Shown one piece after another: positions 16,656 to 59,200 of a DNA stretch of 60,000 nt (positions are counted from its first letter, which is position 1; each line of letters begins with the position of its first letter). The position numbers and the translations under genes are program-made. The DNA lies in contig NC_134031.1 of NCBI RefSeq assembly GCF_964204645.1, positions 622,001-682,000 of the forward strand. The letters are read 5' to 3'. The notes under the pieces were generated by a model. That model was not told the origin of the DNA and made no database searches. It saw only the letters and a program-made list of their open reading frames with translations. Source of the DNA: Tubulanus polymorphus. Lineage: Eukaryota; Nemertea; Palaeonemertea; Tubulaniformes; Tubulanidae.

Positions 16656-16841
16656 ACTCCACAGATAAACAATAAATCATTCAATAATGAATTATATCTT
16701 ACAAGGGCTACAAATACCTTCTTGTTTAGAAAGTATTTCCAACAATCATCGGGGACACATTTGAGAGCGCGTTAGAAAATTAATTGCTTAAACATGCATT
16801 CATTCATTGAAACAGGTCGGTGCCAAGAAAATGTAACTCAC

Positions 16842-17269
16842 CTTTCGAGGCTCATCGCCACCAAATTCAGAATCGACGCGACGGCGGATAACATCTCGGA
16901 GAACGCCGATACTTTACACAGTACTTCACCCATAATAGAATGAGTGGTGAAATATCGTATCATCTCACACGGGACACAGATACCGAGAAATAACAAATCC
17001 GCGATCGCCAAACTCACCAGAAACAACGTCGTCACAGTTCGAGATTTCTTATCGCCCAGAATTACAAACACGACGATACCGTTTCCGATAATCCCAACTA
17101 GAAATGTTAATCCGTAGATTAGTATAGTCGGAATGAATATGGGTTCTTTAAGCCACGGTTTAGCGATGTTATCGATATCGCCATCGTAAAACACGTAGTC
17201 GTCGACTGTAGGATGAACGACGGACGTCTGACTCAAGTTAGAAATGTCGTAAGTTATTTCCTCCGACAT
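16842..17269 (-). CDS. Class A neuropeptide-type GPCR, exon 1 (N-terminus, TM1-TM3)
   Basis: First coding exon of a rhodopsin-class receptor at the plasma membrane that should couple an extracellular peptide to G proteins. It has 428 nt: 142 codons plus two bases, then donor AAAG|GTGAGT. The extracellular N-terminus has an N-glycosylation sequon (NLS, residues 10-12). TM1 is at about 44-71 (GNGIVVFV), TM2 at about 79-104 (SLAIADLLF), and the TM3 cysteine follows in EVLCKVSAF. The exon stops inside the Arg codon of MSLER|Y, the DRY-box equivalent. The start Met (17269) has an in-frame TAA shortly upstream. Exons 2-4 at 4289-4166, 2379-2162 and 1428-1269 join in matching phase, giving 310 residues; TM6, TM7 and tail are missing. 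The pattern resembles CCK-, orexin- and related peptide receptors, but I cannot name the ligand. Confidence 0.93.
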
Positions 17270-18860
17270 TCTGATGTATCCACTTAGTTTTTACGCCGCA
17301 TTCGCCGGTTTCAAATCGATATATCGGGCTTTTCAAAAGTTCTATCGATATTCGTAGGAAGTAGTTTTCGATCGTCAGATCACGAGAATTCAAGTTCGAA
17401 TCTAAATCCACGAACCGTGTTTTTTGAGTAACCGTTCGTCGGAGTCGAACATTGTCATCGTTGCGGTATTTTTACACTGCAGGTTTTAGTGGAAGTCGAT
17501 TTCGTTCGTTTTATTGACGCGTGTTTTCTCTACGAGATGCAGATATTTCACTCGCGCGCGCGCAGACGACGGAAGCGACCGTGAACTCCGATTCCGGTAA
17601 GAGATGCCGAGTTTAAATCGCGACTGTTTAATCACCAGCGAGTGATTAATTATCTCTAGACAGGTGCGCGTCGTGTCGTGACGTCACACGAATGGAAAAT
17701 GATGCAGTTAAATGGTTGTCGTAGATCACGAGATTCTGCGATGAAATGTGCCCCGTGTAGAATCATCAACCGGTGGATTATTCAATGAAATCTCCCTGCG
17801 TTCGATCATTAACGCGAGGCAAATCGCTCTGAAATGGGATCAAAAAAACATTAATGATCGGTTAGATAGAAATTGTCTCAGCTTGTCCGTGACTGCCTGA
17901 GCCGCTATGGACCCATAATCATGACTTGGGTGGCATAAAGTCTCAGTTTCTCGTAGCCCGAGACATAACATCAACTACTATATTAGCATTTTAGAATTGA
18001 CACAATTTGGAATTCATCTTCTTGTTTGTGTAACAATAACTACTATGCAAGATGAAGTTTAACTATCAAACTATAAAAGACTTACTAATTAGCTCATTGT
18101 CATTCTCTTTGCTTCTACGTCAGAATTGACCGACGACAAGAACAACTTAAGGATTTGATCTGCGTATATACACATATACAAATGCGTCACGTTCATTTAG
18201 GGAGAACATGTTGTATTTCGAAGGTCTATCCCCGAGAGAACTTCACTCACATAGTTCTATCAAATGTCACCGAAACTTGTGTGAACAAATAAAAGTGAAA
18301 GGTGAAGCGCAGTCTAAGTATCAGGGGATGAACACGGGACGAATTTGCTGCATGTAATTACACTGTTATAGCCAGTCTTGTTACATGTTAGTTGTAATAA
18401 TTTCCGCCTCATAGACTTTCAAGGAAACCACGAGTGGCGATATGTTTAAAAAACTGATTTCCCTCGGTGATAACACTTGCCTAGATGGTCGACCGTTACA
18501 TTTGAAATGCACCAATCAACGAGTGGACTACGTGACTGGAGTCACTGATTGGATCAAACAATCGTCGGTTAAGATTTGAATAAAACCAAACACCGAGACT
18601 CGAATAGAAGCAGAGACCGCGCGGGCTGCATCGAGTTTAATATTTAATACATGATTTATGAGCCAAATTAGTTCATTTTCAGTAATTATCGAGACAGGTT
18701 CATCCGACTTTCGAACCGCAGACCATCGACGCGTAACAACCAGATGCGCCCAGTTACATTCCAAACTGTACTATAATGATAAAGAATGAGACACTGCTGC
18801 CAGAAGGGAACGGGTTTAAAAAAAAAGATAATGCCATGTAAGTCAGCCTAGTTCATGAAT
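17270..18860. other. 5' flank of the receptor gene
   Basis: No coding exon recognised. It should contain the receptor's 5' UTR and promoter (reading leftward). A CpG-richer patch at about 17500-17640, with alternating CG at about 17553-17563, is a reasonable promoter candidate, but no TATA box or mapped start supports it. The rest is unique AT-rich sequence. Confidence 0.4.
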
Positions 18861-19110: not shown

Positions 19111-20070
19111 GAGGAACAATACCCGTTACATATCATTCATTCTCTGTTTACAAAGAGAGTTTATCTTAGATAACCGCGTTAAACAAGTGAATATCAAATC
19201 ATGTATCGTGTTACACAGTGTGGTATTTCACGTACACAGAATCTTCGTGTTTTATGTTTCAATCAAAATATAATGATGTATAGTATTCACCGGTGATCTG
19301 TTTGCGGTGCACACACAACAACTACCCGCCTGATTGGAGAAAACATCCGTACAAAAAATACACGAGAAAAGAAAATGATTTGAATTTATCAATGCGCGAT
19401 GTTGCGTGCTACGAATGTTCTAGGTGTTGGATATCTCTAGGAGATGATGTGTGGTCACGGCGCGGGGTATAGGGACCGCGCTGGGTTGTGGGCAGTCACC
19501 CGCGCGAGTGGTGACCGGGTGTGTGTAAGTCAAGGGTGAGCCTCTCTCTCGCTCTCACTCTCACACTCTCTCGCTTCTAAAGCGATGATTGATCGAGTTT
19601 TCCAATGATTGAACGCCCTCTCAAGAGACTTTAGATCGAGAGACTAAACAAATTTCTCGATATTTTCTCGAAGCTGCTTATAAATCTTTTTATTTCTCTT
19701 CATTTCCAATTTATCTGTGCATTAAATAAGGGGCACCGGGTAAACAGATTGAGATGAAATTCTTTTTTTAAGCCTGGAAATCGGAAAATACCGATGACAG
19801 ATCCGTAATAATCGAAACTGATCGAAATTAAGAACAAAAATAACCTCATACATATTTTGTTACCTAACACAATTAATGCTCGCTTACCAGGGCTTGATTT
19901 GCTGCTAACTAAGTACACACGATATAATGATACCGTTGAGAGACAATCGGACCCTGGCAAGCGATGATGATGATGTTGACTAGATATGTAGCGGTAAAGG
20001 TACCGGAAGTGAAGCTGTTCCTATACCGCTACATGGCCCAAGTATAGAATACAAGGTAATAGTGCGAGGG
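19111..20070. other. Spacer between receptor and peptide genes
   Basis: Unique sequence with a short CT-rich tract (about 19540-19575). No gene or element recognised. The frame at 19700-19960 on the minus strand has no supporting features. Confidence 0.4.
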
Positions 20071-20632
20071 TGACTTGTTGACTTGATGACAGGTCAACTG
20101 GTCGACTGGCTGACTGGGTGACAGGCCAACTGGTCGACTGGATGACTGGATGACAGGTCAACTGGTCGACTGGTTGACTGGATGACTGGATGACTGGCCA
20201 ACTTGTTGACTGGATTACAGACCAACTTGTTGAATGGATGAAACAGACCAACTTGTTGACTGGATGACAGACCAACTTGTTGACTGGATGACAAACCAAC
20301 TTGTTGACTGGATTACAGACCAACTTGTTGACTGGATGACAGACCAAATTGTTGACTGGATGACAGGCCGACTGGTCGACTGGATGACAGGTCGACTGGT
20401 CGACTGTACGACTGGATTGCAGGCCAACTTGTTGACTGGAGGACAGTTCGACTGGTCGACTGGATGACAGGTCGACTGGATGACAGGTCGACTATGTCGA
20501 CTGGATGACATGATGACAGGTTGACTGGCTGACTGGATGACAGGTCGACTGGATGACAGGTCGACTGGTCGACTGGATGACAGGATGACAGGTCGACTGG
20601 TCGACTGGAGGACAGGTCGACTGGATGACCGG
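20071..20632. repeat. GACTGGATGACAGGTCGACTGGTC minisatellite, array 1
   Basis: About 560 bp of units mixing GACTGGATGACAG with GTCGACTG or CCAACTTGTT. It ends immediately upstream of peptide-gene copy 1. A smaller array of the same family (26470-26705) sits in the same place relative to copy 2. Open frames on both strands are repeat artefacts. Confidence 0.95.
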
Positions 20633-20819
20633 TTGTCCATATATCCAGTCGTATGTATTAATATAACACAGAACCAACCGTTAATTTCTGAATTAATTCA
20701 CAGAGCAAACATTAAGAAGCTACGAAAATTGTTTTTTGCTTCAATGTTTGATATCTGTCACTTAAACTGGATTCAATTTCCTGTCATCGACCCAAACTGA
20801 ACAAACTAACAATTTACAT

Positions 20820-20919
20820 TGTCATATCCAGTTACAAGCGAAGCGTTTGAAATCTTTCTATAAAATATGTCCTGAAAAGGATGACTTCACAGCTGAAATT
20901 CGCCAGTTCTCTCGAACAC
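20820..20919 (+). other. Probable 5' UTR exon of peptide gene 1
   Basis: Ends at a strong donor (CGAACAC|GTAAGT), conserved in copy 2 (ending 26994). Its upstream boundary is not determined. The frame that would continue into the coding exon is open nearby but meets a TAA at 20763-20765 here, where copy 2 has GAA. This favours untranslated sequence, with translation starting in the next exon. Confidence 0.5.
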
Positions 20920-21126
20920 GTAAGTACGCATTTTTCCATAGATTTCATTTGCTCCATTGCAAAAGACCAGAAGAGGCGCAGCACGACGGTCACGAGAAGC
21001 GTGGATTTATGTTACTGCGCCGTGTGATCTAGGCTTCAGGAACCCATAACCTATCCGACTCTGGTATCACACGTTACTAACATCGTATCATTATACTTTA
21101 TAGGTTCAAACGCTGCATTATTGACA

Positions 21127-21643
21127 ATGATTTGTAAGTTCTAATTTTTGCATTTCTAAATTGTGTCATTTTAAATTCATCATTTTCAGTTTATTATAAT
21201 TTCTCGGTTGTAGTATTGAGTGCTAGTTTCTGATCGAATAATCATTTTCAAATTTCGGTTATTGCCAATTCGTGGAAAAACTTTACTGAGAGCCTTAGTG
21301 TCAGAGGGTAATCGCTCAATCGCGACCACGGGCTCACACGAGGTATACGGAGTCCCGCGAACCGGACACTCTCCGGACCGCGGACCGGACACTCTCAGGA
21401 CTAGCCGAAGAAAGAATTAATTTCCAGTGAAATACTTAATGAATATCGATGAATCTGTATTCATATATCTCTATAGGTGAGTTGTATAGATTTGCGGTTC
21501 CACTGTGTGGAATATTTGTGTCTATTTGGGCCCTGGCTTCTGCCGAGGAAGAAAATGAAAACAAGCTGAGTGATGAGGCTTTGATGAGATCAATCCGCCG
21601 GTGCCTCAGTTCTGGTACTCAGTGCAGCGGCAACAACAGTTAA
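21127..21643 (+). CDS. Secreted single-disulfide peptide precursor, copy 1 (join 21127-21133, 21477-21643)
   Basis: A 30 nt micro-exon (21104-21133; acceptor TTTATAG, donor GTAAGT) ends with ATG ATT T. The next exon (from 21477; acceptor CTCTATAG) supplies the other two bases of that codon, giving a 57-residue protein. Residues 1-25 form a signal peptide (hydrophobic AVPLCGIFVSIWALASA). Residues 26-42 are an acidic spacer. Arg-Arg at 43-44 is a prohormone convertase site, and the C-terminal peptide is CLSSGTQCSGNNS with one possible Cys-x6-Cys ring. No amidation Gly is present. An alternative start is the ATG at 21449 without splicing, which gives a different N-terminus. A neuropeptide, hormone or venom-type peptide all fit; I recognise no known family. 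Splicing is inferred from sites shared by both copies. Confidence 0.7.
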
Positions 21644-21854
21644 ACACAACCATGTTTGAAAAATACCACAGACTTCTTTTCTTTATCTTATTTGTCTCAT
21701 TATTTCTTTCGTTAAAAGGTATAATTTTCTGTACTGTGACTAAAAATTAGAAAATACGATTTCGTTTTACTTCAAGTTTATTGTTTGTGTGATTCACTTG
21801 GAGAAACAAGTTACACCTCGAATTAAAACGTTTCTATCTGTTTCTAAAATATCA

Positions 21855-22112
21855 GGATCCAGTTCCACAGTTCAGGACCCAGTTCCACAGTTCAGGACCC
21901 AGTTCCACAGTTCAGGACCCAGTTCCACAGTTTAGGACCCAGTTCCACAGTTCAGGATCCAGTTCCACAGTTTAGGACCCAGTTCCACAGTTCAGGACCC
22001 AGTTCCACAGTTCAGGACCCAGTTCCACAGTTCAGGACCCAGTTCCACAGTTCAGGACCCAGTTCCACAGTTCAGGACCCAGTTCCACAGTTCAGGATCC
22101 AGTTCCACAGCA
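21855..22112. repeat. GGACCCAGTTCCACAGTTCA minisatellite in the 3' region of peptide gene 1
   Basis: Thirteen nearly identical 20 bp units, GGACCCAGTTCCACAGTTCA. It lies between the stop codon and the AATAAA at 22191, so it may be part of the 3' UTR. Copy 2 has only a few degenerate units at the same place (27820-27970). Confidence 0.95.
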
Positions 22113-22190
22113 CTGGGGTCACTGGGGTCACAGTTCTGAATTCGGTTTTACACTCGTTCGTTAGAATTAGTTTAAATGAGGTGAATTTAC

Positions 22191-22196
22191 AATAAA
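22191..22196 (+). promoter_or_regulatory. Candidate polyadenylation signal of peptide gene 1
   Basis: An AATAAA hexamer about 550 bp after the stop codon, in a segment conserved with copy 2, which has AATAAA at the matching position (28013-28018). The shared position supports a role in 3' end formation; a transcript end is not shown. Confidence 0.45.
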
Positions 22197-22251
22197 CGTG
22201 GAATTTGAGTACCGTAAACCTGTGGAACTGACCGCAGTTCTCAGTTTTAGA

Positions 22252-22253
<2 letters not shown>

Positions 22254-22326
<73 letters not shown>

Positions 22327-22330
22327 ATGC
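22254..22330. repeat. GCT/GAT trinucleotide repeat
   Basis: About 18 GCT triplets followed by about 7 GAT triplets, non-coding. The Ser-rich minus frame across it (22167-22499) is a repeat artefact. Confidence 0.95.
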
Positions 22331-22612
22331 CGTTGCTGAGATGAAGGCGGGATGACATAAAGCGAGTATGGACCTGTATGTGATAGTTTGGGTCAGTTAA
22401 TGGGACATGAATAGTTAGTGTAAGATGAGAGAGATTATTATCATCAATTGTTTCTACAGGAAACATAAAAACTGACTGGCACAACTTGTACACACGCAAT
22501 GCGCGATCTATTTAATTAGTAGTTTCACTACTGAACGGATATAACACAGACTAATGTTTATTCTACACGATATAAACCTCTTGAATCATCTTCTAGTTAG
22601 TGGGAGGAAAAC

Positions 22613-22715
22613 AATCCGTGTCCCGAGACACGGCGCCGTGAGTGGACCACCAAACGAATCCGTGTCCCGAGACACGGCGCCGTGAGTGGACCACCAAACG
22701 AATCCGTATCCCCAG
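22613..22715. repeat. 44 bp direct repeat with nested palindromes
   Basis: Two perfect 44 bp copies (22613-22656, 22657-22700) and the start of a third. Each contains GTGTCCCGAGACAC and CACGGCGCCGTG, two overlapping dyads that could form hairpins. Confidence 0.9.
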
Positions 22716-24114
22716 ACCCACAGCGGGCAGTTTTATATCGTCAGAAACTTTGGTGTTGAATGCATCAATTTCTAGCCCGAATCAACCACTATACCAATGT
22801 ATCATAGATACTCATCGAGAAATTGATGTGAGAAGTTTAGAGCCATAGAGGCTGCAACATCACTAATGGACCTTCCTCGGAATAGCGAATTCTTTACAAA
22901 TCTTATATCATATTTTGTATAGAATAAATACTGCGCTCCGCGACGCGAAACATTTAAAACATTTCAGAAATGAAAATTGCCGAGACATTTTATCACCATT
23001 GATGTATTTCTTTCATCTGTCGGCGTCTTGAGAAGCGAAATCAGACGGTGTGTTCAAATAACTCAGCGACCGCGCAATCGAAATCAATACAGAAATGATG
23101 GAATTTACATCTGAAGCGCTGCATTTAACTGTAAATCAAGAGTCGCCTGGTGCAAAATTAATACAGACCCCGCCGCAGAGAAATCAAACTAAATTCCATC
23201 TTATGAAGTGTCATTTTTTCAACAAGATGCCACGATTGAGAAGGTAACGAGAATCTGGAATTATGATATAATTAACACAGTTGTATCGCGAACACGTTCT
23301 TCTCGTTCGGCGATCAATTAATAACGAATCGTCGTCACGTGACTTCATCGAAGATTCGTGAATTAACAATAGAAATTTCCGCAATTGATCCGAAGGGTGA
23401 AATATAACATTCCGTGCTTCACGGGACTCTGATTATCACTATTACCCAGCCATCGCGTGACTTAATCTTCGATTCCCGTTTTAAAATACACAAATTTCGA
23501 CGACACAAATTAGATATTTTTCCTCGGTGATGAGAGAGAGGGGGAAGAGAGAGAGGGAGGGAGAGGGGGAGCGGACCAGAGAATCTCTATCGCCTTCGGG
23601 TTTTCTAGTCATTAAATCAAAACGCTCGCGCGCCAGTGGTAGTTCTACTGGAGTTTGTAGAGATTTCGCGTGCGTCGTTTTCTAAATGATGATTTATGAA
23701 GCGTCTCTTTTTACTGAACACACAGAATACTCAATTGTCAATTGAGTTTAGCCGACTGTGGCGGTGGAGCGGAGAAGACCGAATTATCTGAATGCCAAAC
23801 GCTTCAAACCGCATCTAAATACAGACTCCTCACTGATCAACCCCTGAATCAATATGTTTTTCCTATTTACATTTCGCAAATAAAGCGTTCGGATTTTCTG
23901 TAATGCGACGTTTGGAGCGAATAAAACCAGAATTGAATCTAAACCGAGACCGAGTTTTATTTGAATGAAGTTTGATGATTAAACATTGAATGAACGAATC
24001 TTTAAACTTTAAATTACTACGTACGTTTTCACCATATATATTCTGTAACCGCAAAAAATTGCAGAATTGTAGCTCATGACATGTGAAGCCATTGTACGTT
24101 CGCTTCATACTAGA

Positions 24115-24160
24115 GCCTGGCGCACCTGGCGCACCTGGCGCACCTGGCACACCTGGCGAT
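24115..24160. repeat. GCGCACCTG nonamer repeat
   Basis: Four tandem copies of CCTGGCGCA/CCTGGCACA. Translated frames (Gly-Ala-Pro) look collagen-like but do not extend beyond the repeat. Confidence 0.85.
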
Positions 24161-24314
24161 AGCCGAATTTACTTCATGTCGAACGAAAAAAATCGTTCGT
24201 CCGCGGTTATAGGAGACAGAAAGGAGTCGCCGAGTATCAAATGCATAAAAGACACGGAACCGATCATCTCGATGAATTGATAATTTTAACAACTTGCATT
24301 CAGATTGTCGAGTG

Positions 24315-24425
24315 GGACACACGTTGACCAGCCAGGTGTCCGCGTGGACCAGCCAGATGTCCGCGTGGGCAAGTCAGGTGTCCGCATGGATCAGTCAGGT
24401 GTCCACGTGGACGAGTCAGGTATCC
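24315..24425. repeat. GTCAGGTGTCCGCGTGGACCA minisatellite
   Basis: Four to five imperfect units of about 24 bp (GACCAGCCAGGTGTCCGCGT). No coding context. Confidence 0.85.
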
Positions 24426-26274
24426 ACCCGAGATAGAACGTTATACTCTTACAGTTGACTCGTTCGGTAAATAGGTCGGAACTATACACACACTCACACA
24501 TACATGTATGTTCGATAGTGATAGATTACAACAAACATCATCTACTGCTGTGTAAATGCATCAATCGTTAATTGACAGTAAAATCAATCAGATGCTTGAA
24601 TACTAAGTGCGCGTCACTTCTAAAAAACCACCGATTTTCCAGGTATTTAGAACAATTCATTTTATGATAAATTCGTCCTTGAAAACGAAATGAAACCATG
24701 AATTTAATTAGCGCTAAGGATTCTACATTTCACGCTTAAACACACAGTTTCTCGCAACTAGAGGCGCTTTTAGGAAAGTGGACTCGATCCAAATCTTACA
24801 GCATAATGGGACCAGGTTCTGGGGATTTTCCTGTAGATAGGATATTAGTAGGAACAGGATACGATTTCACGGTTCCACACTTTTCTTCGTGTTGATATTC
24901 AGTATTACATTTAACCTACTTTGAGTTCATTTCCAATGGCTTAACTCTAGGCTCAAAACTCAGAACCGCTATGAACTGTGGAACTGTAGAACTGCCCCCT
25001 GGTACACAACTTAAAAATTTCATCAATCGTTCACCGGAAGTGATGTATTATCACGATTTGAGTCGTTCTATAAAACTTCCTTCCAATCCCTCTCAACAAA
25101 ACCTTGGTCTCATGTTTGCATTCAGTTAGTATATAGTCCTATAGAGACAGTCACTATAACAAGTGTGGACTAAATACTGAAACAACAGTACTGAGTTTGA
25201 CTAATGGGTGACCACGCCCTTGTAAAGCCAGTATCGATAACGGAGAAGCAATTACACGCGTAATTAGAACCGCGCCGTTAATAGGATTGTAGTTAGTTAG
25301 ATCTGTCATTTTCCCGTCGGAAACAGGGAAAAAATGTAATACTGTAGGGTAATTGAGAATAATTGGGACAGTAAGCTGCGAATAGTAGTATTCGTTGTGT
25401 TATAGTATAGGTTAATCAGATTCGTGAATGGCGACCTTCAACGCTACCCTGGCAATCGACAATTCCTCATATGGTAAGCGAGGATCCACCAGGTGTCGCT
25501 AGTAATAACTCGGTCTTCCGCGTTCAATTTATTCCACAATTCAGTCAATATTCAACGGATTTCTTTCAGATGAGTAGAAAATCACTGAGTAGAAGCAATG
25601 AATCCCATATATATTTGGGAGGTTCCTGTGATACTCCAGGTTTCGGGAGCCTAAATATTCAGTTAAAAGATCATTGATTCTGAACTGATATCAGCAATTG
25701 ACGCTCGTCACGCCGTCTGGCGGCATAACGTTGCAGTTCACCGTTCCTTCAGGATGATCTTCATTCCGTGCCTGGGATTCCCATCACGTATTGAAATACA
25801 GATATAAAGACTATTGAGTTGTGTATTGTTGGGTACAAAAGGACGCGTCGCACGGTCGGGTGCCAGTACGGAGAACACACATGTGCATTTCTCATCTCGC
25901 ACCTGTTTCTTTCAACTCGCACCTGTTACTACGTCTTATATCAATGACACGTTATAAGATACATTATATGTATACAACGGAACATCGATTTTTTCTGCTT
26001 TTGAAAAAAAATGTTCTTGAAGAATGAACAGCGACTTGGACAGTGTAAAGCAGTACTAAGCGTTTTGAATATCTTCACCATTCCGTACAGTAAAAGGCTG
26101 ACGGTGACTGTCGTCTCAGTGGCTGGCGTCTCAGTGGCTGTCGTCTCAGTGCTGTCGTTTCAATGACTGTCCTCTGCTCCCGACCTCCGTGACGTCATCT
26201 GCGCGACATCGATAGATAACCAGTTGTTGGACCGGAAGTGCACGGTTTAAATCTATTTGAATATTGATACTACT

Positions 26275-26455
26275 CCCTTCTCGTAGTGCGAGAGAGATGA
26301 ACGCCCTATACTACTCCCTTCTCGTAGTGCGAGAGGGATGAACGCCCCATACTACTCCCTTCTCGTAGTGCGAGAGGGATGAACGCCCCATACTACTCCC
26401 TTCTCGTAGTGCGAGAGGGAGGAACGCCTCATACTACTCCCTTCTCGTAGTGTAA
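26275..26455. repeat. 41-42 bp minisatellite with internal dyad
   Basis: Four full units and a partial fifth of TACTCCCTTCTCGTAGTGCG followed by AGAGGGATGAACGCCCCA. CCCTTCTCG...CGAGAGGG within each unit is an inverted repeat. It is followed directly by minisatellite array 2 of the GACTGGATGACAG family. Confidence 0.93.
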
Positions 26456-26469
26456 CAACCAGTCCCTGA

Positions 26470-26705
26470 GAGGGAGGAACTGGTCGCCTGGTTGACTGGA
26501 TGACAGGCCAACTGGTCGACTGGTTGACTGGATGACTGGATGACAGACCAACTTGTTGACTGGATTACAGACCAACTGGTCGCCGTGATGACAGGCCAAC
26601 TGGTCGCCGTGATGACAGAGCAACTGGTCGCCGTGATGACGGGCCAACTGGTCGCCGTGATGACAGGCTAACTGGTCGACCGGATGACAGGATGACAGGA
26701 TGACA
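26470..26705. repeat. GACTGGATGACAGG minisatellite, array 2
   Basis: A smaller array of the family at 20071-20632, with a GGTCGCCGTGATGACAGGCCAACT variant. It immediately precedes peptide-gene copy 2, in the same relative position as array 1 before copy 1. Confidence 0.93.
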
Positions 26706-27202
26706 GGCAGGTCGTCCATATATCCGGTCGTATGTATTCATATAACGCAGAACCAACTGTTCTGAACTAATTTGCAGGTGCAAAATTTAAAAGCTATTAA
26801 AAATTGTTTTTTGCTTCAATGTTTGATATCTGTCACTGAAACTGGATTCAATTTCCTGCCATCGACTCAAACTGAACAAACTAACAATTTACATTGTCAT
26901 ATCCAGCTACAAGCGAAGCGTTTGAAATCTTTCTATAAAATATGTCCTGAAAAGGATGACTTCACAGCTGAAATTCGCCAGTTCTCTCGAACACGTAAGT
27001 ACGCATTTTTTCCATAGATTTCATTTGCTCCATTGCAAAAGACCAGAAGAGGCGCAGCACGACAGTCACGAGAAGCGTGGATTTATGTTACTGCGCCGTG
27101 TGATCTAGGCTTCAGGAACCCATAACCTATCCGACTCTGGTATCACCCGTTACTAAAATCGTATCATTATACTTTATAGGTTCAAACGCTGCATTATTGA
27201 CA

Positions 27203-27698
27203 ATGATTTGTAAGTTCTAATTTTTGCATTTCTCAATTGTGTCATTTTAAATCCATCATTTTCAGTTTATTATAATTTCTCGGTTGTAGTATTGAGTGCT
27301 AGTTTCTGTTCGAATAATCATTTTCAAATTTCGGTTATTGCCAATTCGTGGAAAAACTTTACTGAGAGCCTTAGTGTCAGAGGGTAATCGCGACCACGGG
27401 TTCACGAGAACGTAGTATACGCAGTATACGGAGTCCCGCGAACCTGACACTCTCAGGACTAGCCGAAGAAAAAATTAATTTCCAGTAAAATACTTAATGA
27501 ATATCGATGAATCTGTATTCATATATCTCTATAGGTGAGTTGTATAGATTTGCGGTTCCACTGTGTGGAATATTTGTGTCTATTTGGGCCCTTGCTTCTG
27601 CCGAGGAAGAAAATGAAAACAAGCTGAGTGATGAGGCTTTGATGAGATCAATCCGCCGGTGCGTCAGTTCTGGTTCTAATTGCAGCAACAGCAGTTAA
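27203..27698 (+). CDS. Secreted single-disulfide peptide precursor, copy 2 (join 27203-27209, 27535-27698)
   Basis: Same structure as copy 1: micro-exon 27180-27209 ending ATG ATT T, then an exon from 27535 to the stop at 27698, giving 56 residues. Signal peptide, acidic spacer and Arg-Arg are identical in amino acids to copy 1; the only coding change before the Arg-Arg is a silent CTG/CTT. The C-terminal peptide differs: CVSSGSNCSNSS in place of CLSSGTQCSGNNS, keeping both cysteines and their spacing. All base changes after Arg-Arg alter the protein (Leu/Val, Thr/Ser, Gln/Asn, a one-codon deletion, Asn/Ser). The longer open frame through the preceding exon (26772-27017) is probably untranslated, because copy 1 has a stop there. 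Confidence 0.7.
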
Positions 27699-28012
27699 AC
27701 ACAACCATGTTTGAAAAATACCAACGACTTCTTTACTTCAAGTTTATTGTTTGTGTGATTCACTTGGAGAAACAAGTTACACCTCGAATTGAAACGTTTC
27801 TTTCTGTTTCTAAAATATCAGGATCCAGTTCCACTGTTCAGGACCCAGTTCCACAGCACTGGGGTCACTTTCACCGTTCAGGGCAATGTTCCACGTTTCA
27901 TGACTCTGTTCCACAGTTCTGGCACAGTTCAACAGCTCGGGACCCAATCCCACAGTCTTGAGGCCAGTTCCGCAGTACTGAGTTCGATTTTACACTCAAT
28001 CGTTAGATTTCA

Positions 28013-28018
28013 AATAAA
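28013..28018 (+). promoter_or_regulatory. Candidate polyadenylation signal of peptide gene 2
   Basis: An AATAAA hexamer in the conserved 3' part of the duplicated unit, about 315 bp after the stop codon and matching the one in copy 1. Confidence 0.45.
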
Positions 28019-28561
28019 GTGGAAAAACGTGGAAATTTAGTACCGATAACTGTGGATGCAGTTTCATAGTTAGATTTAGATCTCAAGTCTAAGAGTGAAA
28101 GTTTTTGTGGATGATTTTAGTATTCTCATTGACCCGTGAAGATAACAGCTCGCAGCAGCTGCTGCTGCCGCTGCGACGCTGTATCTTACACATTCACCGT
28201 AAATAAAAAGCAAAAAATCGAGATAAATCTAGTATTCACGAATCAATGACTGAATTCTGGGGCTATAAAATCACCATAAAACGATTTACAGTACAACAAA
28301 AATCTAGATGTTTTACACGAAGAAAGACAGACAGAAAGAGTGAGAGGGGGAGGAGGGAAAAATATCAGTTCAGTCCATCAATCAATCAAACATCAAATGA
28401 ATATCACAAATGAAGGACACGATTTCAGCATGGATGAGAATGTGAAGGATCTAATCTATAAACCGTGATCGCTAATAGTGATGTAGTTTTTATCTCGCCG
28501 CTAAATCGAAGTCTGAATTGTTTTATATGTAATCAATTCTTTCAAATTAAGGAGACAATTA

Positions 28562-28980
28562 GAGTAAGGACCCAGTTCCACAGTACGGACCCAGTTCAAC
28601 ATGAGGACCCAGTTCCACAGTAAGGACCCAGTTCCACAGTACAGACCCAGTTCCCCAGTACAGACCCAGTTCAACATGAGGACCCAGTTCCCCAGTAAGG
28701 ACCCAGTTCCACAGTACGGACCCAGTTCCACAGTAAGGACCCAGTTCCACAGTACAGACCCAGTTCAACAGTAAGGACCCAGTTCCACAGTACAGACCCA
28801 GTTCAACATGAGGACCCAGTTCCCCAGTAAGGACCCAGTTCCACAGTACGGACCCAGTTCCACAGTAAGGACCCAGTTCCACAGTACAGACCCAGTTCAA
28901 CAGTAAGGACCCAGTTCCACAGTACAGACCCAGTTCAACATGAGGACCCAGTTCCCCAGTAAGGACCCAGTTCCACAGTT
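28562..28980. repeat. GGACCCAGTTCCACAGTA minisatellite, with higher-order structure
   Basis: About 22 units of 18-20 bp alternating GGACCCAGTTCCACAGTA, CAGACCCAGTTCAACA and TGAGGACCCAGTTCCCCAGTA, arranged in a repeated higher-order block of about 130-150 bp. Same family as 16436-16655 and 21855-22112. Confidence 0.93.
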
Positions 28981-48534: not shown

Positions 48535-49700
48535 GTAAGAGCTATAGCATTTTAATGAGTGTTTCATTTAATTAGGGAATAAGTACCGACAGTCACTCAC
48601 TGTACACATGTATCTACACGATACAGAGAGAGAGAGAGACAGCGTGCGAGCGAGTCGACACGGGGGTATTGTAAAATATATACATCGACTACAACAAAAA
48701 TACTTTTGAATTAATAATGACTTGTAGAACACGATACGTTTCAGGTAACAAGGTTTGATCGATTTTTACGGCCCACTTGTGACTCGTTAGAATCGGAATC
48801 TGGAGAGTGGGTTGGGTTGGATAATTTGCAATGAGGAGTTGTATAAGAGCTGTGCACCACCGCAAAACGCACACGAGTACTGACAATTAATTAGTACGTC
48901 ATACATCAGCGCCGCTTTGATTTTGCGGATAATATCAGAACTAAATAAGGCTTGAGTGTCTATTGTTCGCAGGTTTTATACTGTCGCTTATTTCTGCCGG
49001 ATCAAGATCACCTTGTGAACAACGTGAATAGCAATTTATATATAGCCTGAAAAAATGTGGTCTCCTGAAGAGTCAATAATCTCACCATTCTCGAAATAGA
49101 AGTTAATTGAGATAATTGATTAAAAAACGAATCACACTACAAAGAGACATGACATTATTTAATCGTTGTCCGGATATAACGTCTGTCTGTAAGTGTCAGC
49201 CCACGTTATCACGTTATCTAACGGTAAGAGACTCGTGACCACTCCTACCGGCGACGACACTGGAGGCTTAGATCTTAAAACCAGAATACAGAACCAATAG
49301 GCCTATGCAAGGTGGAATTGGTAGAATGTTTTATTCAAATTGAATGGTAGGCCTATTGGAAATATTGGTCCAGTAGCCTGTTATCGAGTCGACCAGCCCG
49401 ACCGATATAGCGACACCGAGATCGTTAACTGCGATGGAGTATTGACCCGCCCTCGGTCACTTATCGATAAAGCAGAACCTGTTACCATCGGCGCCAATAT
49501 TAAAAGTAGATTTCCGAGATCCAACAGCTAAATCACTCCCTCATTTTCATTATGCTTGTATTGAAACGACCATCCCTATTTACCGGGTTGATCTGGTTAA
49601 GGTTACATTGTTCAATTCTGAATTGCCGATCGCTAACTGTTGATATACGTTATGCCGAATTCGTTGAAACTTTCTCGCTTTGTTTTCTTTTCAAAAAAAG
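48535..49700. other. M13 gene intron 2
   Basis: A 1.2 kb intron, unique sequence with a short GA run near 48626. No extra exon recognised. Confidence 0.7.
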
Positions 49701-49862
49701 CTGCCAAAATCATGGAAGCTATGGACACGACGGTCAAACCGTGCGATAACTTTTATCAATTCGCCTGCGGCATGTGGGTGAAAAAACATATAATACCGGA
49801 CGATAAACCAAAAATCAATACGTTTATAGAACTTAAAGATGGATTAAGAATTAGTTTGAAAG
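49701..49862 (+). CDS. M13 peptidase exon 3a (alternative exon, PCDNFYQFACG)
   Basis: A 162 nt exon, phase 1 at both ends. It encodes the conserved M13 N-terminal ectodomain segment PCDNFYQFACGMW followed by IPDDKPKINTF. Splice sites are weaker than average (TTTTCAAAAAAAG acceptor; AAAG|GTACAC donor). A second exon of exactly the same length and phase, encoding the same segment, lies 1.0 kb downstream (50862-51023). Since 162 is divisible by three, use of either, both or neither keeps the frame, but using both would duplicate the two-cysteine segment. Mutually exclusive use is therefore the likely design. Confidence 0.88.
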
Positions 49863-50861
49863 GTACACGACGGGGTATACCCGCACGTTCTACTCATCAG
49901 CTACGCTTCTCAGTGCTGCCCTGTAACGAGCTTTTTAGAACTAGCATGCTATATTCTGTAGTTTTAATTTTTTTTGTAGTTTACTAGTGTATGGCTTGTT
50001 TATCTATTTTTAATGATATCCAATTTCTTTATCTGTTTCTCATTTTGCGAGGTTTGAATAATTTAACCAAACTTCACGACTGCTTCCTGAGTTGAGAGAG
50101 AGCCTAATTTGCATAAATCATTCATTTCTCAACTCCGGTCAAGGTCGAGGTCTTCTCACACTTCAATGGACATGAACGTTTTTTGGTCGGTTACTATACT
50201 GGTCAAAAGGGTAAACAAAACATTATTAGAATTCGGGAATCATGCTTGTCCATGTGCGTTACGAGTATTGCTCACATCATGCGATATATTGGCCGTCAAA
50301 TGGCCGTCAGTTTGTCGCTTGTCGTTTTATAACAGTTTCACTTAGATTATTTCAAATGAAAGCTTTCATACCGGTTTTATTATCGTAGTATATAAAACCA
50401 GCTACAACCAAAATCAACGAGAAAACGTTCATAGTCTGTAAACGGGCCAGTTGTACAGTGATGGCTTATATTTAGGAACTGCCTTCGGCCAACTTAGTTC
50501 TATAGCCAATCTATCAACTTAAGATCAGTATATTGACTCAAAACTACCACGTTTAGACTTCAGTCACAACTGCACAACTGGTCCCTGGATCTTTTATAAC
50601 TTATATATTTCTGGTGAGGTGAAGTGATGCATGAATAAACAGTAGAAGTCCTTTGCCACTGTTGGGGCCAATGAAAAATATGACGTTATAACGAATTTGG
50701 CAACGTTATAAAAAATCTTATTTCCTTTGAGTTTGAGTTAAATTGTGGGAATGTGATCTCTGAAAGATGCTGGCGTTTAGAGAGCGGTGTGGCAGCGTTA
50801 TAACGGACTTTGACTGTACTATAATCTCATGTAGCACGTTATTATTTGATGTTGTTTTTAG
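49863..50861. other. M13 gene intron between exons 3a and 3b
   Basis: About 1 kb of unique AT-rich sequence with an isolated fragment of the CACAACTG family (about 50560-50590). No exon seen. Confidence 0.7.
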
Positions 50862-51502: not shown

Positions 51503-51699
51503 GTAAGTATCAGCCATATTGAAAACAGGGATATACTTCACTGGGGAGGGTTAGTTCTATATATCAAGCAGCTCAAGCCGTACGAAGACTTAGGTGTTAG
51601 CGCTCCGAGCAAAATAAACTTAAAATTGCACAGCCTTACCACGACAGGTATTATATGCCGCTCCAGATTAATTTACTTTTCTCATGTCATTTTTTGTAG

Positions 51700-51905
51700 C
51701 CCAAATTAAAGTGATCGGTGACGGTCCATTACGTAAGGTATTAGACACGTTGGACGGGTGGCCGGTCGTTGCTGGAAAATGGGACGAAAATCTGTGGAAT
51801 TTGGAGGAAAAGCTGGCGTTTCTTCGTGTGAAGTATCACGCGCCGCTATTAGTGAAATCATACGTAGGAATAGACGATAGAAATTCATCAGCTTATGTGC
51901 TTACA
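51700..51905 (+). CDS. M13 peptidase exon 5
   Basis: A 206 nt exon, phase 1 in and phase 0 out (acceptor CATTTTTTGTAG; donor TTACA|GTACGT). It encodes IGDGPLRKVLDTLDGWPVV and the YVGIDDRNSSAYVLT segment typical of M13 ectodomains, with an NSS glycosylation sequon. A 15-bp-class minisatellite starts about 25 bp after its donor. Confidence 0.9.
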
Positions 51906-51930
51906 GTACGTACCTTTATCAGTGCGAGAC

Positions 51931-52115
51931 AAGGGGTCAGTTAATCAGGGGTCAGTTACTCAGGGTCAGTTAATCAGGGGTCAGTTACTCAGGGTCAGTT
52001 AATCAGGGGTCAGTTACTCAGTGGTCAGTTAATCAGGGGTCAGGTAATAAGGGGTCAGTTACTCAGTGGTCAGTTAATCAGGGGTCAGGTAATAAGGGGT
52101 CAGTAAATCAGGAGT
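51931..52115. repeat. GGGGTCAGTTAATCA / CAGTTACTCA minisatellite
   Basis: About 12 units of 14-15 bp beginning about 25 bp downstream of the exon 5 donor, in M13 intron 5. Confidence 0.93.
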
Positions 52116-54944: not shown

Positions 54945-54965
54945 TTTTGGTGCCGTGACCAGGAT
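54945..54965 (+). promoter_or_regulatory. Retrotransposon primer-binding site
   Basis: TTTTGGTGCCGTGACCAGGA directly after the LTR. GGTGCCGTGACCAGGAT-type sequences in this position are typical of BEL/Pao elements, where a host tRNA primes minus-strand synthesis. The priming tRNA is not determined here. Confidence 0.65.
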
Positions 54966-54997
54966 ATACAAGCAGTAAATTCAGAAACTCAGCCAAG

Positions 54998-56251
54998 ATG
55001 CCGTCGAAAGAAGAGATAATGCGAAATGCGCAAATTCGACAGATGACGAAACTTTTTGATCAGGCGAGGGATTTACTTCATTCGGAAAGTGACGAAAGCC
55101 TAGACAAATTGTCTGGCGTCATAACTAGAATACGTACAAAATTGGAAGTTATCGCAGGATATGATTCGGAACTGATTGCGAACGCAGAGTTAGGGAAACT
55201 CGAAGACCTCGTATGTGAAACCGATGATTATATGAACGAAATAAACATCGAACTATCAACCTTCATCGGATACCTCGAACGGAAAAAGAATCAAATCGAA
55301 CCGACAACGCGCATGAAATCCGAGCATCAAAAAACTGCGAAAAGACCGATCCAGTTGCCGAAGTTATCTTTGCCAACATTCGATGGCGATATTCTGAAAT
55401 GGCAAACGTTCTTCGATGGGTTTTTCTCGGCAGTTGATAGTGATGAGAACTTAACGAATATCCAAAAGTTCCAATATCTGTCCGCACAGCTAAAGGGCGA
55501 CGCTGCAAAAACGATCGAAAACCTGAGTTTAACAAACGAAAATTATAATCAAGCTTTGGAACTTTTGTTAAACCGGTACGGGACACCACACAAAATTGTG
55601 GCCGCATACATGAAAGCGTTGTGGGAGCTTTCACCACCGAGTGATCGCGACAACTCACTACGGAATTTCTATGACTCTCTGGAATCTTATATTCGTGGAT
55701 TAAATTCACTCGGAAAATCCGAAGAATCGTACGGAGATCTGTTAGTACCCATCATAATGGAAAAACTACCGAGCGGAACTAAACAACAGATTACCAGAGA
55801 CCACGGTAACAATGCTTGGAGCCTGACTGATCTAAGAAAGTCACTCCTTAAAGAAATTGAGGCCTTCGAGGCTAGTATCGAAAGCCTTACGATAGAGGAT
55901 GATTTTCCCGCCAATTCGCCGACCGTGGGAGCGTTCGCAGTTACGGCGAAAAACAGACATAATTTTTCACGGGAAAACGATCGAAAATGTGCGTTCTGCA
56001 AAAAGATCAATCACGTTGCGGTGGACTGTAAAACGTTTCCAGATGCTGAAAAACGCAGAGAAATTGTTGCTAGGGATAATTTATGCTTTAATTGTCTCTC
56101 GAGCGGTCACAAATCGACGAAATGCTTATCGAAAAACAGATGCAGAGTTACAAACTGTGGCAAAAAGCATCACACATCAGTTCATTTAGATGCAAAATCA
56201 ACCACACCTGTGGCCGCAAAATCAACCGATGAGAAAGCTGACAGGGATTGA
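54998..56251 (+). CDS. gag: BEL/Pao gag
   Basis: A 417-residue capsid polyprotein. The first ATG after the primer site is used. An N-terminal coiled-coil-like region (about 1-110) is followed by LPKLSLPTFDGDILKWQTFF (from about 122), the start of the DUF1759-type gag domain common in BEL/Pao. Near the C-terminus are two zinc knuckles of C-x2-C-x4-H-x4-C form (about 331-344 and 362-375) and a third Cys/His cluster ending GKKHH. The frame ends at TGA 56249-56251. The next codons continue in the same frame into pol with no other stop, so the element may read through this codon or may carry a point mutation. Confidence 0.93.
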   Translation: MPSKEEIMRNAQIRQMTKLFDQARDLLHSESDESLDKLSGVITRIRTKLEVIAGYDSELIANAELGKLEDLVCETDDYMNEINIELSTFIGYLERKKNQIEPTTRMKSEHQKTAKRPIQLPKLSLPTFDGDILKWQTFFDGFFSAVDSDENLTNIQKFQYLSAQLKGDAAKTIENLSLTNENYNQALELLLNRYGTPHKIVAAYMKALWELSPPSDRDNSLRNFYDSLESYIRGLNSLGKSEESYGDLLVPIIMEKLPSGTKQQITRDHGNNAWSLTDLRKSLLKEIEAFEASIESLTIEDDFPANSPTVGAFAVTAKNRHNFSRENDRKCAFCKKINHVAVDCKTFPDAEKRREIVARDNLCFNCLSSGHKSTKCLSKNRCRVTNCGKKHHTSVHLDAKSTTPVAAKSTDEKADRD

Positions 56252-56281
56252 CATCAGTATCTGGGCGCCGCCGATGGAACA

Positions 56282-59200
56282 GTGTTATTAAAAACAGCTA
56301 TCGCGAACGCAAAAAGTCGCGAAGGCGTAACGACTAACGTAAACATCTTGTTCGACGAGGGCGCTCAGCGGAGTTTTATTACTCAAAGAACAGCCGAAAG
56401 ATTATATATAAACAGTGAAGAAACCGAAACTATATCGATCAACACATTTGGCGCGAAACAATCAAGTGCGCGGTCACTGATTGTTGCGAACTTTACACTA
56501 TGTTCTGATGAAACCGACATACCGATAACGGCGTTAATTGTTCCACAAATTGCGTCGACAATGCGAAACCAAACCGGCAGATCTATCAAAGATTTACCGT
56601 ATCTGACAGGTTTGAAATTAGCGCATCCGTTTTCTACCGAATCACACTTCGAAATCGACATTTTAATCGGTGCCGATTTCTATTGGTCAGTGGTCGGTAA
56701 CCACACAATCCGCGGAAATGGACCCACGGCAGTATCTTCGAAATTAGGGTATCTTCTCTCTGGACCGTTTAGTGATTGCGATCCAATAAATACTGCACGA
56801 GTTTACAACGTGGATGTTACGTCACATCGTTCGGAGGAAGTCAACCTCCAAAAATTCTGGGATCTCGAATCCATAGGCGTAACTGATGCAACAGATGCGG
56901 CTTCAAAAGAATTCAATCTACTCGACTACTGTCAATCAAGCCTGACGACATCCGACACGGGACGGTATACTGCGAAGTTGCCGTGGAAGAGTGGACACGC
57001 CCCCCTTCCGACAAATTACTATGTTACTCGAAACATAACACAATCGATGATTCGTCGGCTATCGCCGCAAATTCGAAATGTTTACCACAACATTATCATG
57101 GATCAATTATCGCGAGACTTCATCGAAGAAGTCACAGATGATGACCGAAACATAGGTCATTATTTACCGCATCGCGCGGTCAAGAAGGAATCGTCAACAA
57201 CCCCTATCCGTATCGTCTATAACGCGTCTTTATCGACCGCGGGAAACCCTAGTTTAAATGATTGTTTGGAGACCGGTCCGACGCTGCTGAATGACCTCGG
57301 TTCAATCCTGATCAGATTCAGGTTGCATAAATTCGGATTGTCGGCGGATATCGAAAAGGCGTTTCTTCAAGTTGGTCTGCACGATGATGATCGCGAGTAT
57401 ACGAAATTTCTATGGTTGACTGATCCTAAGAATCCAGAAAGTGAACTCAAAACCTATCGCTTCAAGGTTATATTGTTCGGCGTGGTGAGTTCACCCTTTA
57501 TATTGAATGCTACTGTTCGTTTTCATCTAAATAATTATAATAACCATGTATCACGTGACTTAGTTAAAAATATATATGTCGACAACGCGATTAGTGGATG
57601 TGAATCTGAGAGCGATCTCATGAAATACTATACGAATATCAATAGCATAATGAAAAACGGCGGATTTAAACTTCAGTCTTATGCTTCTAACTCTTCGTTA
57701 CTAAAGGCCAAAGCAGATTCCGATAATTTATCGGACGAGAAAACTATTGTTTCTGCGCTCGGACTCCAATGGGATACGGTGAATGATACGCTGTCATTCA
57801 AAAACAAACAAGCGTTCGCCAATCCTGACTTGATTACCAAACGCGAAATCGTTAAGGCTGTCTCGAGCCTTTATGACCCGTTAGGATACGTCTCGCCTGT
57901 CCATATTAAGTCGAAGATGTTCGTACAGCAGTTGTGGACGGAAGGTTATGAGTGGGACGAAACCCTACCCGAGCGCGTAGTCGAATCGTGGATCTCGTTG
58001 ATAACGGAATTGCGTGAAATTAGCGAAATACGCGTTGATCGACGCTACTCGAAATCGGAAGCGAAATCGGAAGCTAAGTACGAATTGCACACTTTCTGCG
58101 ATGCGAGCCAATTGGCATACGGCGCTTGCGTCTATCTAAAACGTGGAGATCAGACGGTACTCGTCATGTCTAAATCGCGTGTGGCACCTGTTAAAAAACA
58201 TACGATACCGCAGTTAGAATTAATGGCCGCGTTGATTGGTGCTAAATTAACAGATTACGTTCGAAACAGTCTGATTACTGAAATAGTCATAACAAAGTGC
58301 GTGCTCTGGTCAGATAGCCAGATTGTGTTACACTGGATCAACTCCGAGAAAAAGCTTCCCGTCTTCGTAGCTAATCGCGTGCGTCAAATTAAATCGGTGA
58401 CAACTATCGGTCGCTATAAATATTGTCCGACGAGTGACAATCCGGCTGATATGTTAAGCAGAGGAATATCGTGCGAACAAATTACGCGATGCACGCTCTG
58501 GTGGAATGGCCCTAGCTGGCTTAGCAACGGTAATTATCCCACCTGCGACACGATCGATCGAGCAGTTTTGCTCATAACCGAAATGGACGAGGACAAACAG
58601 CCTGACGAAAAAATCTGCGAAAACAACGAAGTCGGAATATGTAACGTAATAGATCAGAACGATTTCACTTCGTTAACAAGGCTATTACGCGTAACCGCGC
58701 TAGTTCGACGATTTATTAAAAAGTCAAGACGCGAAAACCATGAATCGGATGAAATAACTGCTAACGAAATAGCAGAATGCGAAGATCTATGGAACAAAGG
58801 TGTTCAATCGAGTTACTTCAATGACGTGAAAGTTAGTTTAGAACATAAATCTAAGAAAAGGCCATCACTTGTAAAGAAACTTCGTTTGTTTTTAGAAGAT
58901 GATATCATTCGTGTTGGAGGCCGTCTCCATAACGCGCCCATCGGATACGATGCAAAGTTTCCGATATTGTTACCTCATTGTAGATATAGTGAATTAATCG
59001 TACTGGATTCCCATAATAAGGTCAAACACCTCGGTACAGAATCTACTATAACCGTAGTCCGACAAAAGTATTGGATTACTCGTGTTCGTCAAGTGGCTCG
59101 GAAGTTGTTGAGAAAATGCGTCATATGCAAATATATCACCGGTAAACCGTACTCGTTACCAAACTGCGCTCCGTTACAATCTTCGCGTTTGAAAGAGGCT

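What the first reader, a model, noticed from the sequence alone, without database searches (positions are those of the whole stretch)
20635..28085. Duplicated secreted peptide genes whose changes are concentrated in the mature peptide
Seen: two copies, 6 kb apart, of a three-exon gene for a 56-57 residue precursor (signal peptide, acidic spacer, Arg-Arg, C-terminal Cys-x6-Cys peptide). In the 5' part of the coding exon, about 127 nt, I count one difference, silent. In the last 40 nt there are four amino-acid substitutions and a one-codon indel, all protein-altering, while both cysteines and their spacing are kept. Known: this conserved prepro / variable mature pattern is typical of toxin, antimicrobial and some neuropeptide families. 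Inference: a diversifying secreted peptide family, not one I recognise.
Basis: partly seen in the sequence, partly recalled or inferred. Interest (0 to 1): 0.86.

Follow-up and report, generated by a model that had tools for sequence, protein, structure and literature searches.

The report
Ribbon-worm hypervariable secreted peptide family
Two neighbouring genes in a marine ribbon worm turn out to belong to a large, apparently undescribed family of genes that keep a similar delivery signal but nearly all make a different tiny secreted peptide, a pattern best known from cone-snail and spider venoms.

Summary
The window is from the palaeonemertean ribbon worm Tubulanus polymorphus. The two genes belong to a superfamily of at least 54 loci on 11 contigs (53 readable). 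46 members were tabulated: hydrophobic signal region (46), acidic spacer (42), Arg-x-x-Arg cleavage site (35), then a hypervariable C-terminal peptide, 9-18 residues in 41, with exactly two cysteines in 33; 45 of 46 differ. The start codon lies on a conserved micro-exon (22 of 33 loci, 0 of 33 on the opposite strand). In seven close pairs, replacement change at non-cysteine mature codons (0.185) exceeds total change in the flanking intron (0.075) and 3' UTR (0.100), while prepro replacement is 0.043. Silent change is also about three times higher in the mature part than in the prepro, so 'all changes protein-altering' does not generalise. Three profile searches gave one hit, an uncharacterised Tubulanus protein; their sensitivity is limited. 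Best reading: a conopeptide-like library of defensive or predatory peptides. Expression and activity are untested.

The parts
20859..20867 (+). TATA-box-like TATAAAATA of copy 1
   Evidence: Read; also present at the matching place in L002, L005 and L006
20890..20919 (+). Copy 1, end of non-coding exon 1 (start of transcript not known), donor GTAAGT at 20920
   Evidence: No substitution between copies; TATA-to-donor stretch 0.13 and 0.22 diverged from L005 and L006 against 0.40 and 0.35 for intron 1
21104..21133 (+). Copy 1 micro-exon, ends ATG ATT T (start codon, Ile, one base of codon 3)
   Evidence: Motif ATGATNN|GTRAG upstream of 22 of 33 family exons on the same strand, 0 of 33 on the other; only 2 in the whole window
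21477..21643 (+). Copy 1 coding exon 3: signal peptide, acidic spacer, R-S-I-R, mature peptide, stop
   Evidence: best tblastn match outside the window E 7.5e-12
21599..21640 (+). Copy 1 mature segment RCLSSGTQCSGNNS (or without the first Arg)
22191..22196 (+). Candidate poly(A) signal AATAAA, copy 1
   Evidence: Read; not tested
26934..26942 (+). TATA-box-like TATAAAATA of copy 2
26965..26994 (+). Copy 2, end of non-coding exon 1, donor at 26995
27180..27209 (+). Copy 2 micro-exon (ATG at 27203)
   Evidence: Identical to copy 1; motif scan
27535..27698 (+). Copy 2 coding exon 3
27657..27695 (+). Copy 2 mature segment RCVSSGSNCSNSS (or without the first Arg)
28013..28018 (+). Candidate poly(A) signal AATAAA, copy 2
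   Evidence: Read; not tested

Best explanation
The two genes belong to a large Tubulanus gene superfamily that makes a combinatorial library of short, mostly one-disulfide secreted peptides. Each transcript joins a non-coding leader exon, a micro-exon carrying only the start codon, one Ile and one base, and one coding exon. The signal peptide sends the precursor into the secretory pathway, the acidic spacer is removed at a furin-type Arg-x-x-Arg site, and the C-terminal peptide is released, closed by a Cys-Cys bridge and in some members probably C-terminally amidated. Tandem and dispersed duplication multiplies the genes; selection keeps the delivery part and the cysteines and favours change in the loop residues. 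Most likely role: venom or defensive secretion of the proboscis or skin mucus, working the way conopeptides do. Shown: the family, the conserved gene structure, the uneven and locally accelerated change. Inferred: splicing in every member, cleavage, disulfide, amidation, tissue and target.
For: At least 54 loci on 11 contigs (53 of 54 read). Strict R-x-x-R at 35 of 46 predicted sites, basic-x-x-basic at 39; exactly 2 Cys in 33 of 46, 3 Cys in 9, 0 or 1 in 4; 45 of 46 mature peptides distinct; 11 of 46 end in Gly. Spacer net negative in 42 of 46; hydrophobic stretch in all 46. Non-Cys mature replacement 0.185 against flanking intron 0.075 (p=3e-5), 3' UTR 0.100 (p=0.005) and prepro replacement 0.043 (p=3e-8); 5 gap runs in the mature segments (ends included), 0 in the prepro; 1 Cys mismatch (7 close pairs). 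Mature is more diverged than every other segment, both introns included, in 4 of 4 whole-gene comparisons, which share members. Nemerteans are known to use peptide toxins in mucus and proboscis (PMC6410017, passages seen), and other nemertean toxin families show positive selection and duplication (PMC10674772, passages).
Against: No expression or peptide data. Inside the mature segment pooled dN/dS is 0.85, because silent change is raised too (11 pairs). In individual pairs mature divergence is sometimes no higher, or hardly higher, than the flanks (L101/L102, L082/L107, L022/L024, and below the 3' UTR in L011/L014). Against the 3' UTR alone the excess is modest (p=0.005). Four of 46 peptides lack two cysteines. 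The micro-exon motif was not found in 11 of 33 loci with about 1.5 kb upstream. No homology to any known toxin was found.
Confidence: 0.6

Rival explanations
1. A mucosal antimicrobial or immune peptide family that diversifies against microbes, like frog skin peptides or mussel myticalins.
For: Multigene, sequence-diverse peptide families with a prepro region exist among antimicrobial peptides (myticalins: PMC5577615 and PMC12294457, listing and abstract start only; frog families recalled). Nemertean skin is covered in mucus (PMC6410017).
Against: The mature peptides are short, rich in Gly (16.4%), Cys (15.9%), Ser (12.8%) and Asn (7.1%) and mostly near neutral: net charge between -1 and +1 in 32 of 46, +2 or more in 9 of 46, unlike cationic membrane-active peptides.
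Confidence: 0.2
2. Signalling peptides: neuropeptides, pheromones or self-recognition peptides.
For: Basic processing sites, a single disulfide and C-terminal Gly in 11 of 46 are also features of neuropeptides; EP/CCHamide is a two-cysteine neuropeptide of nemerteans (PMC6617912, passages).
Against: Conserved neuropeptides do not form 50-gene hypervariable families (recalled). [quoted passage not shown] A pheromone or recognition role is not excluded.
Confidence: 0.13
3. No adaptive change: the C-terminus is simply unconstrained and drifts, and the prepro looks conserved because it is under purifying selection or homogenised by gene conversion.
For: Silent change in the mature segment is also raised (0.224 against 0.068, 11 pairs; against intron in 7 pairs 0.152 to 0.075, p=0.06); in L021/L023 the intron differs at 0.39 while prepro silent sites differ at 0.02, which fits conversion of the prepro; L088, L093 and L095 look decayed to me.
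Against: Drift alone should not exceed intron and 3' UTR change, yet non-Cys mature replacement does in the pooled close pairs; cysteines are kept while neighbours change; 53 of 54 catalogued loci hold the frame over the signal region.
Confidence: 0.07

Closest known systems
Conopeptide (conotoxin) gene superfamilies of cone snails
   Same: Conserved signal peptide, removable propeptide, C-terminal hypervariable Cys peptide; both dN and dS rise towards the mature part and indels concentrate there (PMC3862624, section 22 with Table 5 read)
   Different: No sequence similarity found; in the nine superfamilies of that paper introns split signal from mature part (passages), here signal, spacer and mature part share one exon; mostly one disulfide here; no clear site-specific cysteine codon bias, which conotoxins have (PMC3823881, abstract)
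Spider toxin superfamilies such as the hexatoxins (Shiva superfamily)
   Same: Hydrophobic signal, highly acidic propeptide, conserved protease site, variable mature toxin (PMC4029134, passages); some spider toxin genes are intronless (PMC3425536, title and abstract start), so a within-exon contrast may have precedent there
   Different: Spider toxins are multi-disulfide knots (recalled); no sequence similarity detected; a micro-exon start is not mentioned in the passages seen
Nemertides alpha and beta, cytotoxin A (nemertean toxins)
   Same: Same phylum, secreted peptides, duplicated genes with positive selection (PMC10674772, passages)
   Different: Nemertide alpha-1 has 31 residues and three disulfides in a cystine knot (PMC6410017, passages); here 5-26 residues with 0-3 cysteines
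EP/CCHamide neuropeptides
   Same: Two cysteines in a short secreted peptide, known in nemerteans
   Different: Peptide follows the signal peptide directly, usually amidated, broadly conserved in protostomes (PMC6617912, passages); here C-terminal after an acidic spacer and hypervariable

Membership tests
Conotoxin superfamilies | Signal peptide homologous to a known superfamily | tested here: inconclusive
   Profiles A1, A2, A3 against 5.8 billion proteins: only one hit, a Tubulanus protein, with A1. A2 held that very sequence as a row and still missed it, so absence is weak evidence
Conotoxin superfamilies | Mature peptide separated from the signal by an intron | tested here: not met
   Signal, spacer and mature peptide are on one open exon in the 46 tabulated members
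Hypervariable prepropeptide libraries (works like) | Many paralogues, conserved prepro, divergent mature with kept cysteines | tested here: met
   45 members compared: mean pairwise identity prepro 0.400; mature 0.146 outside Cys-Cys columns (within-peptide shuffles 0.082-0.085) and 0.303 with them (shuffles 0.195-0.322)
Hypervariable prepropeptide libraries (works like) | Expression in a venom or secretory gland | not testable with these tools
   No RNA-seq or peptidomics available
Alpha-nemertides | Six cysteines, about 31-residue cystine knot | tested here: not met
   0-3 cysteines, 5-26 residues in 46 of 46
EP/CCHamide | Peptide directly after signal peptide and C-terminal amidation signal | tested here: not met
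   Window copies: C-terminal after an acidic spacer, no terminal Gly; definition from PMC6617912 passages
Cationic membrane-active antimicrobial peptides | Strong positive charge | tested here: not met
   Net charge +2 or more in 9 of 46 only
Any Pfam family | Match to a model | tested here: not met
   0 Pfam families for window copy 1 at E up to 1; other members were not scanned

The most novel reading that the evidence does not exclude
A focal process acts inside one short exon: about 40 bases coding the mature peptide accumulate silent as well as replacement changes about three times faster than the roughly 120 bases just upstream, starting at the cleavage site. Either mutation is locally raised, or gene conversion keeps homogenising the prepro while selection shields the mature segment. 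Because both segments share one exon, separate treatment of separate exons, as has been proposed for conotoxins, cannot be the cause.
Probability: 0.22. Interest if true: 0.85.

Novelty: new member of a known kind. Interest (0 to 1): 0.68.

Why it matters
A 2019 review counted only three main nemertean peptide-toxin families confirmed at the peptide level (PMC6410017, passage). Two published screens that I looked into relied on similarity to known toxins (PMC9415933, passages) or asked for at least four cysteines (PMC12846013, passages); either filter would probably pass over this family. It offers a further origin, independent as far as I can see, of a conopeptide-like peptide library, and a natural test of whether such hypervariability needs the mature peptide on its own exon: here it does not. 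It also defines 42 predicted short peptides with at least two cysteines (of 46) that could be made and screened.

Tried and rejected
Pfam for the window peptide (none), Rfam and tRNA scans of the window (none), solved structures (none). A first idea that C-x6-C meant CCHamide was dropped after reading the family and passages of PMC6617912. Site-specific cysteine codon bias as in conotoxins: not clear (Cys1 25 TGC and 17 TGT, Cys2 18 TGC and 24 TGT; p=0.19). The simple claim 'dN/dS above 1 in the mature part' was rejected as a pooled result: 0.85 within the mature segment, 0.84 in the prepro, over 11 pairs; the case for selection rests on comparison with flanking intron and 3' UTR in 7 close pairs that I chose for having alignable introns. 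Of the 14 pairs computed, 3 that share a member with another pair or align poorly were left out of the pooled 11. The prepro tree is poorly resolved (10 of 42 inner branches well supported) and was not used for counts. Profiles A2 and A3 found nothing at E up to 10; A2 missed even P0001, whose sequence it contained.

Rows dropped: of 54 catalogued loci, L088 was not read (the anchor does not lie in one frame); of the 53 read, 7 were left out of the 46-member table: L015 (no acceptor found), L090-L092 and L096 (near-copies of L089 and L025/L027), L093 and L095 (no clear site). One further weak place (C6:4973817, E 0.018) was not read. The site in each member was placed by a motif that I chose by eye. 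The catalogue was grown by repeated searches, some at E up to 10, and checked by layout, not by a blind control.
Full report
WHAT WAS CHECKED. A whole-unit alignment gives 1 silent difference in 122 aligned prepro bases, and 5 substitutions in 37 aligned bases plus one codon-long gap in the mature part, none silent. Both cysteines and their spacing are kept. The duplicated unit reaches from upstream of the TATA-like box to beyond the stop codon. By segment the pair differs by 0.00 in the TATA-to-donor stretch, 0.02 in intron 1, 0.00 around the micro-exon, 0.06 in intron 2 (partly an indel-rich stretch), 0.01 in the prepro, 0.13 in the mature part and 0.06 over 33 aligned bases of 3' UTR; the upstream 150 bases differ by 0.09.

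ORGANISM. The window is G000:C7:622001-682000 of a 267.8-Mb genome in 77 contigs. The only database hit of the family profile is NCBI's 'uncharacterized protein LOC141911382 [Tubulanus polymorphus]', on a contig of 16,481,795 bases, the length of G000:C9. Its C-terminal part is letter for letter the precursor that I predicted for L029 on C9. The taxonomy gives Nemertea, Palaeonemertea.

A SUPERFAMILY. The window protein finds 40 places in its own genome, 31 of them at E below 2e-3. Searching again with relatives and reading the places gave 54 distinct loci on 11 contigs, 53 of which could be read. They include a cluster of nine on C7 3.137-3.166 Mb and smaller groups on C4, C5, C6, C7, C9 and C12. 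Even a place with E = 3.9 (L082) proved to have the micro-exon, the splice phase and the whole precursor layout. The search reports lower bounds, so the true number may be higher.

GENE STRUCTURE. In 52 of the 53 loci read the coding exon begins in phase 1 after an AG acceptor, which for L010 the script placed a few bases late; none was found for L015. The motif ATGATNN followed by a GTRAG donor lies upstream on the same strand in 22 of 33 loci with about 1.5 kb of upstream sequence, and in 0 of 33 on the opposite strand; in the 60-kb window it occurs twice, once at each gene. In the other 11 loci it was not found. The first non-coding exon with its TATA-like box is shared by the window pair and L005/L006. 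The NCBI protein P0001 shows the micro-exon residues MI joined to exon 3 as predicted. That record is a database protein; I did not see its transcript support.

PRECURSOR. Over 46 tabulated members the signal region has a hydrophobic stretch in 46 and the spacer is net negative in 42. The last basic residue sits in R-x-x-R in 35 and in basic-x-x-basic in 39. The mature part has exactly two cysteines in 33, three in 9, none or one in 4. The spacing of the first two cysteines runs from 3 to 11, 4 to 6 in 36 of 42. 11 of 46 end in Gly, a possible amidation signal; 45 of 46 mature peptides are distinct. Over 45 members mean pairwise identity is 0.400 in the prepro and 0.146 in the mature part outside Cys-Cys columns, against 0.082-0.085 for three shuffles within peptides; with cysteines counted the mature value, 0.303, lies within the shuffles' range of 0.195-0.322. 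So the mature parts share little beyond the cysteines.

EVOLUTION. In seven close pairs with alignable introns the replacement rate at non-cysteine mature codons is 0.185; prepro replacement is 0.043. Total change is 0.075 in the 200 bases before the coding exon (mostly intron 2; for pairs with a short intron 2 it reaches further upstream) and 0.100 in the first 100 bases of 3' UTR (segments counted). Fisher tests of mature replacement give p = 3e-5 against intron, 0.005 against UTR and 3e-8 against prepro replacement. Five gap runs, ends included, fall in the mature part, none in the prepro; one aligned cysteine differs. In 4 of 4 whole-gene comparisons within the window subfamily, which share members, the mature part is more diverged than either intron. 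The pairs are few and were chosen by me; no codon-model program was available.

RESULTS AGAINST A SIMPLE READING. Over 11 non-overlapping pairs silent change is 0.068 in the prepro and 0.224 in the mature part (Fisher p = 1e-4; bootstrap over pairs ratio 3.35, 95% 1.43-7.27). In the 4 pairs whose mature parts align without gaps (Fisher p = 0.0014) and in the 7 close pairs (p = 0.009) the difference remains, but the bootstrap intervals include 1 (0.69-7.09 and 0.52-9.48). In the 7 close pairs silent change against intron is 0.152 to 0.075 in the mature part (p = 0.06) and 0.040 to 0.075 in the prepro (p = 0.12). In single pairs the mature part is sometimes no more, or hardly more, diverged than the flanks (L022/L024, L101/L102, L082/L107; L011/L014 against its 3' UTR). 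Raised silent change can come from gene conversion of the prepro (L021/L023: intron 0.39, prepro silent 0.02), from local hypermutation, or in part from counting error in diverged codons.

HOW IT PROBABLY WORKS. Secretion, removal of the acidic spacer by a furin-like enzyme, closing of the Cys-Cys loop, amidation in some, and release as a mixture. A mixture of many unlike, mostly near-neutral, Gly/Ser/Asn-rich one-loop peptides fits ligands of many targets better than membrane-lytic peptides. Ribbon worms carry toxins in proboscis and mucus (PMC6410017, passages), so a venom or defence role is the leading inference. An immune or signalling role is not excluded.

KNOWN OR NOT. Profile searches of the protein collection, Pfam for the window copy and solved structures gave no relative outside this species. 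Since only one of at least 54 Tubulanus loci surfaced, and profile A2 missed even that one, absence from other species is weak evidence. Literature searches and passages of PMC8557429, PMC9415933, PMC10674772, PMC9132205 and PMC12846013 show no description of it; I did not read these papers whole, and supplementary tables could not be read. The general pattern is well known from cone snails (PMC3862624, section 22) and spiders (PMC4029134, passages). In cone snails the rise of dN and dS towards the mature part was tentatively ascribed to different polymerases on different exons; here the contrast lies within one exon, so exon-wise treatment is not needed. Intronless spider toxin genes (PMC3425536, title and abstract start) may already make that point.

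VERDICT. Real, larger than described, undescribed as far as I could search, and of a known kind in its logic. My estimate that it is a genuine gene superfamily of secreted peptides: about 0.93; that its role is venom or chemical defence: about 0.6.

Noticed in passing
window 16838-17290 (-): Exon of a rhodopsin-type GPCR, 150-residue open frame (Pfam 7tm_1, E 2e-20).
   Followed up: no
window 49637-49987 and 51672-51944 (+): Exons of an M13 (neprilysin-like) peptidase (Peptidase_M13_N, E 5.5e-12 and 3.8e-6, the second below the curated cut-off).
   Followed up: no
window 54959-56251 and 56252-59563 (+): Two back-to-back open frames of 430 and 1103 residues; the first matches DUF1759, which I recall as typical of Pao/BEL retrotransposons.
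   Followed up: no
window 20060-20640 and 26460-26710; 21850-22120, 27830-27860 and 28560-28980: Both copies are preceded by a similar ~24-base minisatellite and followed by a similar ~20-base minisatellite, the latter expanded after copy 1 and again 500 bases beyond copy 2.
   Followed up: no
L088-L092 (C8: 2.39, 2.43, 2.61, 3.60, 3.81 Mb): Five closely similar family copies spread over 1.4 Mb; one (L088) does not hold the frame. Suggests recent dispersal, perhaps with a repeat.
   Followed up: partly
L011, 1021 and 645 bases upstream of exon 3: Two micro-exon copies in front of one coding exon: possible alternative starts or remnant of a partial duplication.
   Followed up: no
L025, L027, L096 (C6 and C25): Near-identical members whose predicted mature part is only FQRSG or FQSG, without cysteine.
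   Followed up: no
L017, L020, L026, L029, L074, L101, L102: A recurring core C-[DN]-x-N-G-x-C in the mature peptides of members on C4, C6 and C9.
   Followed up: no
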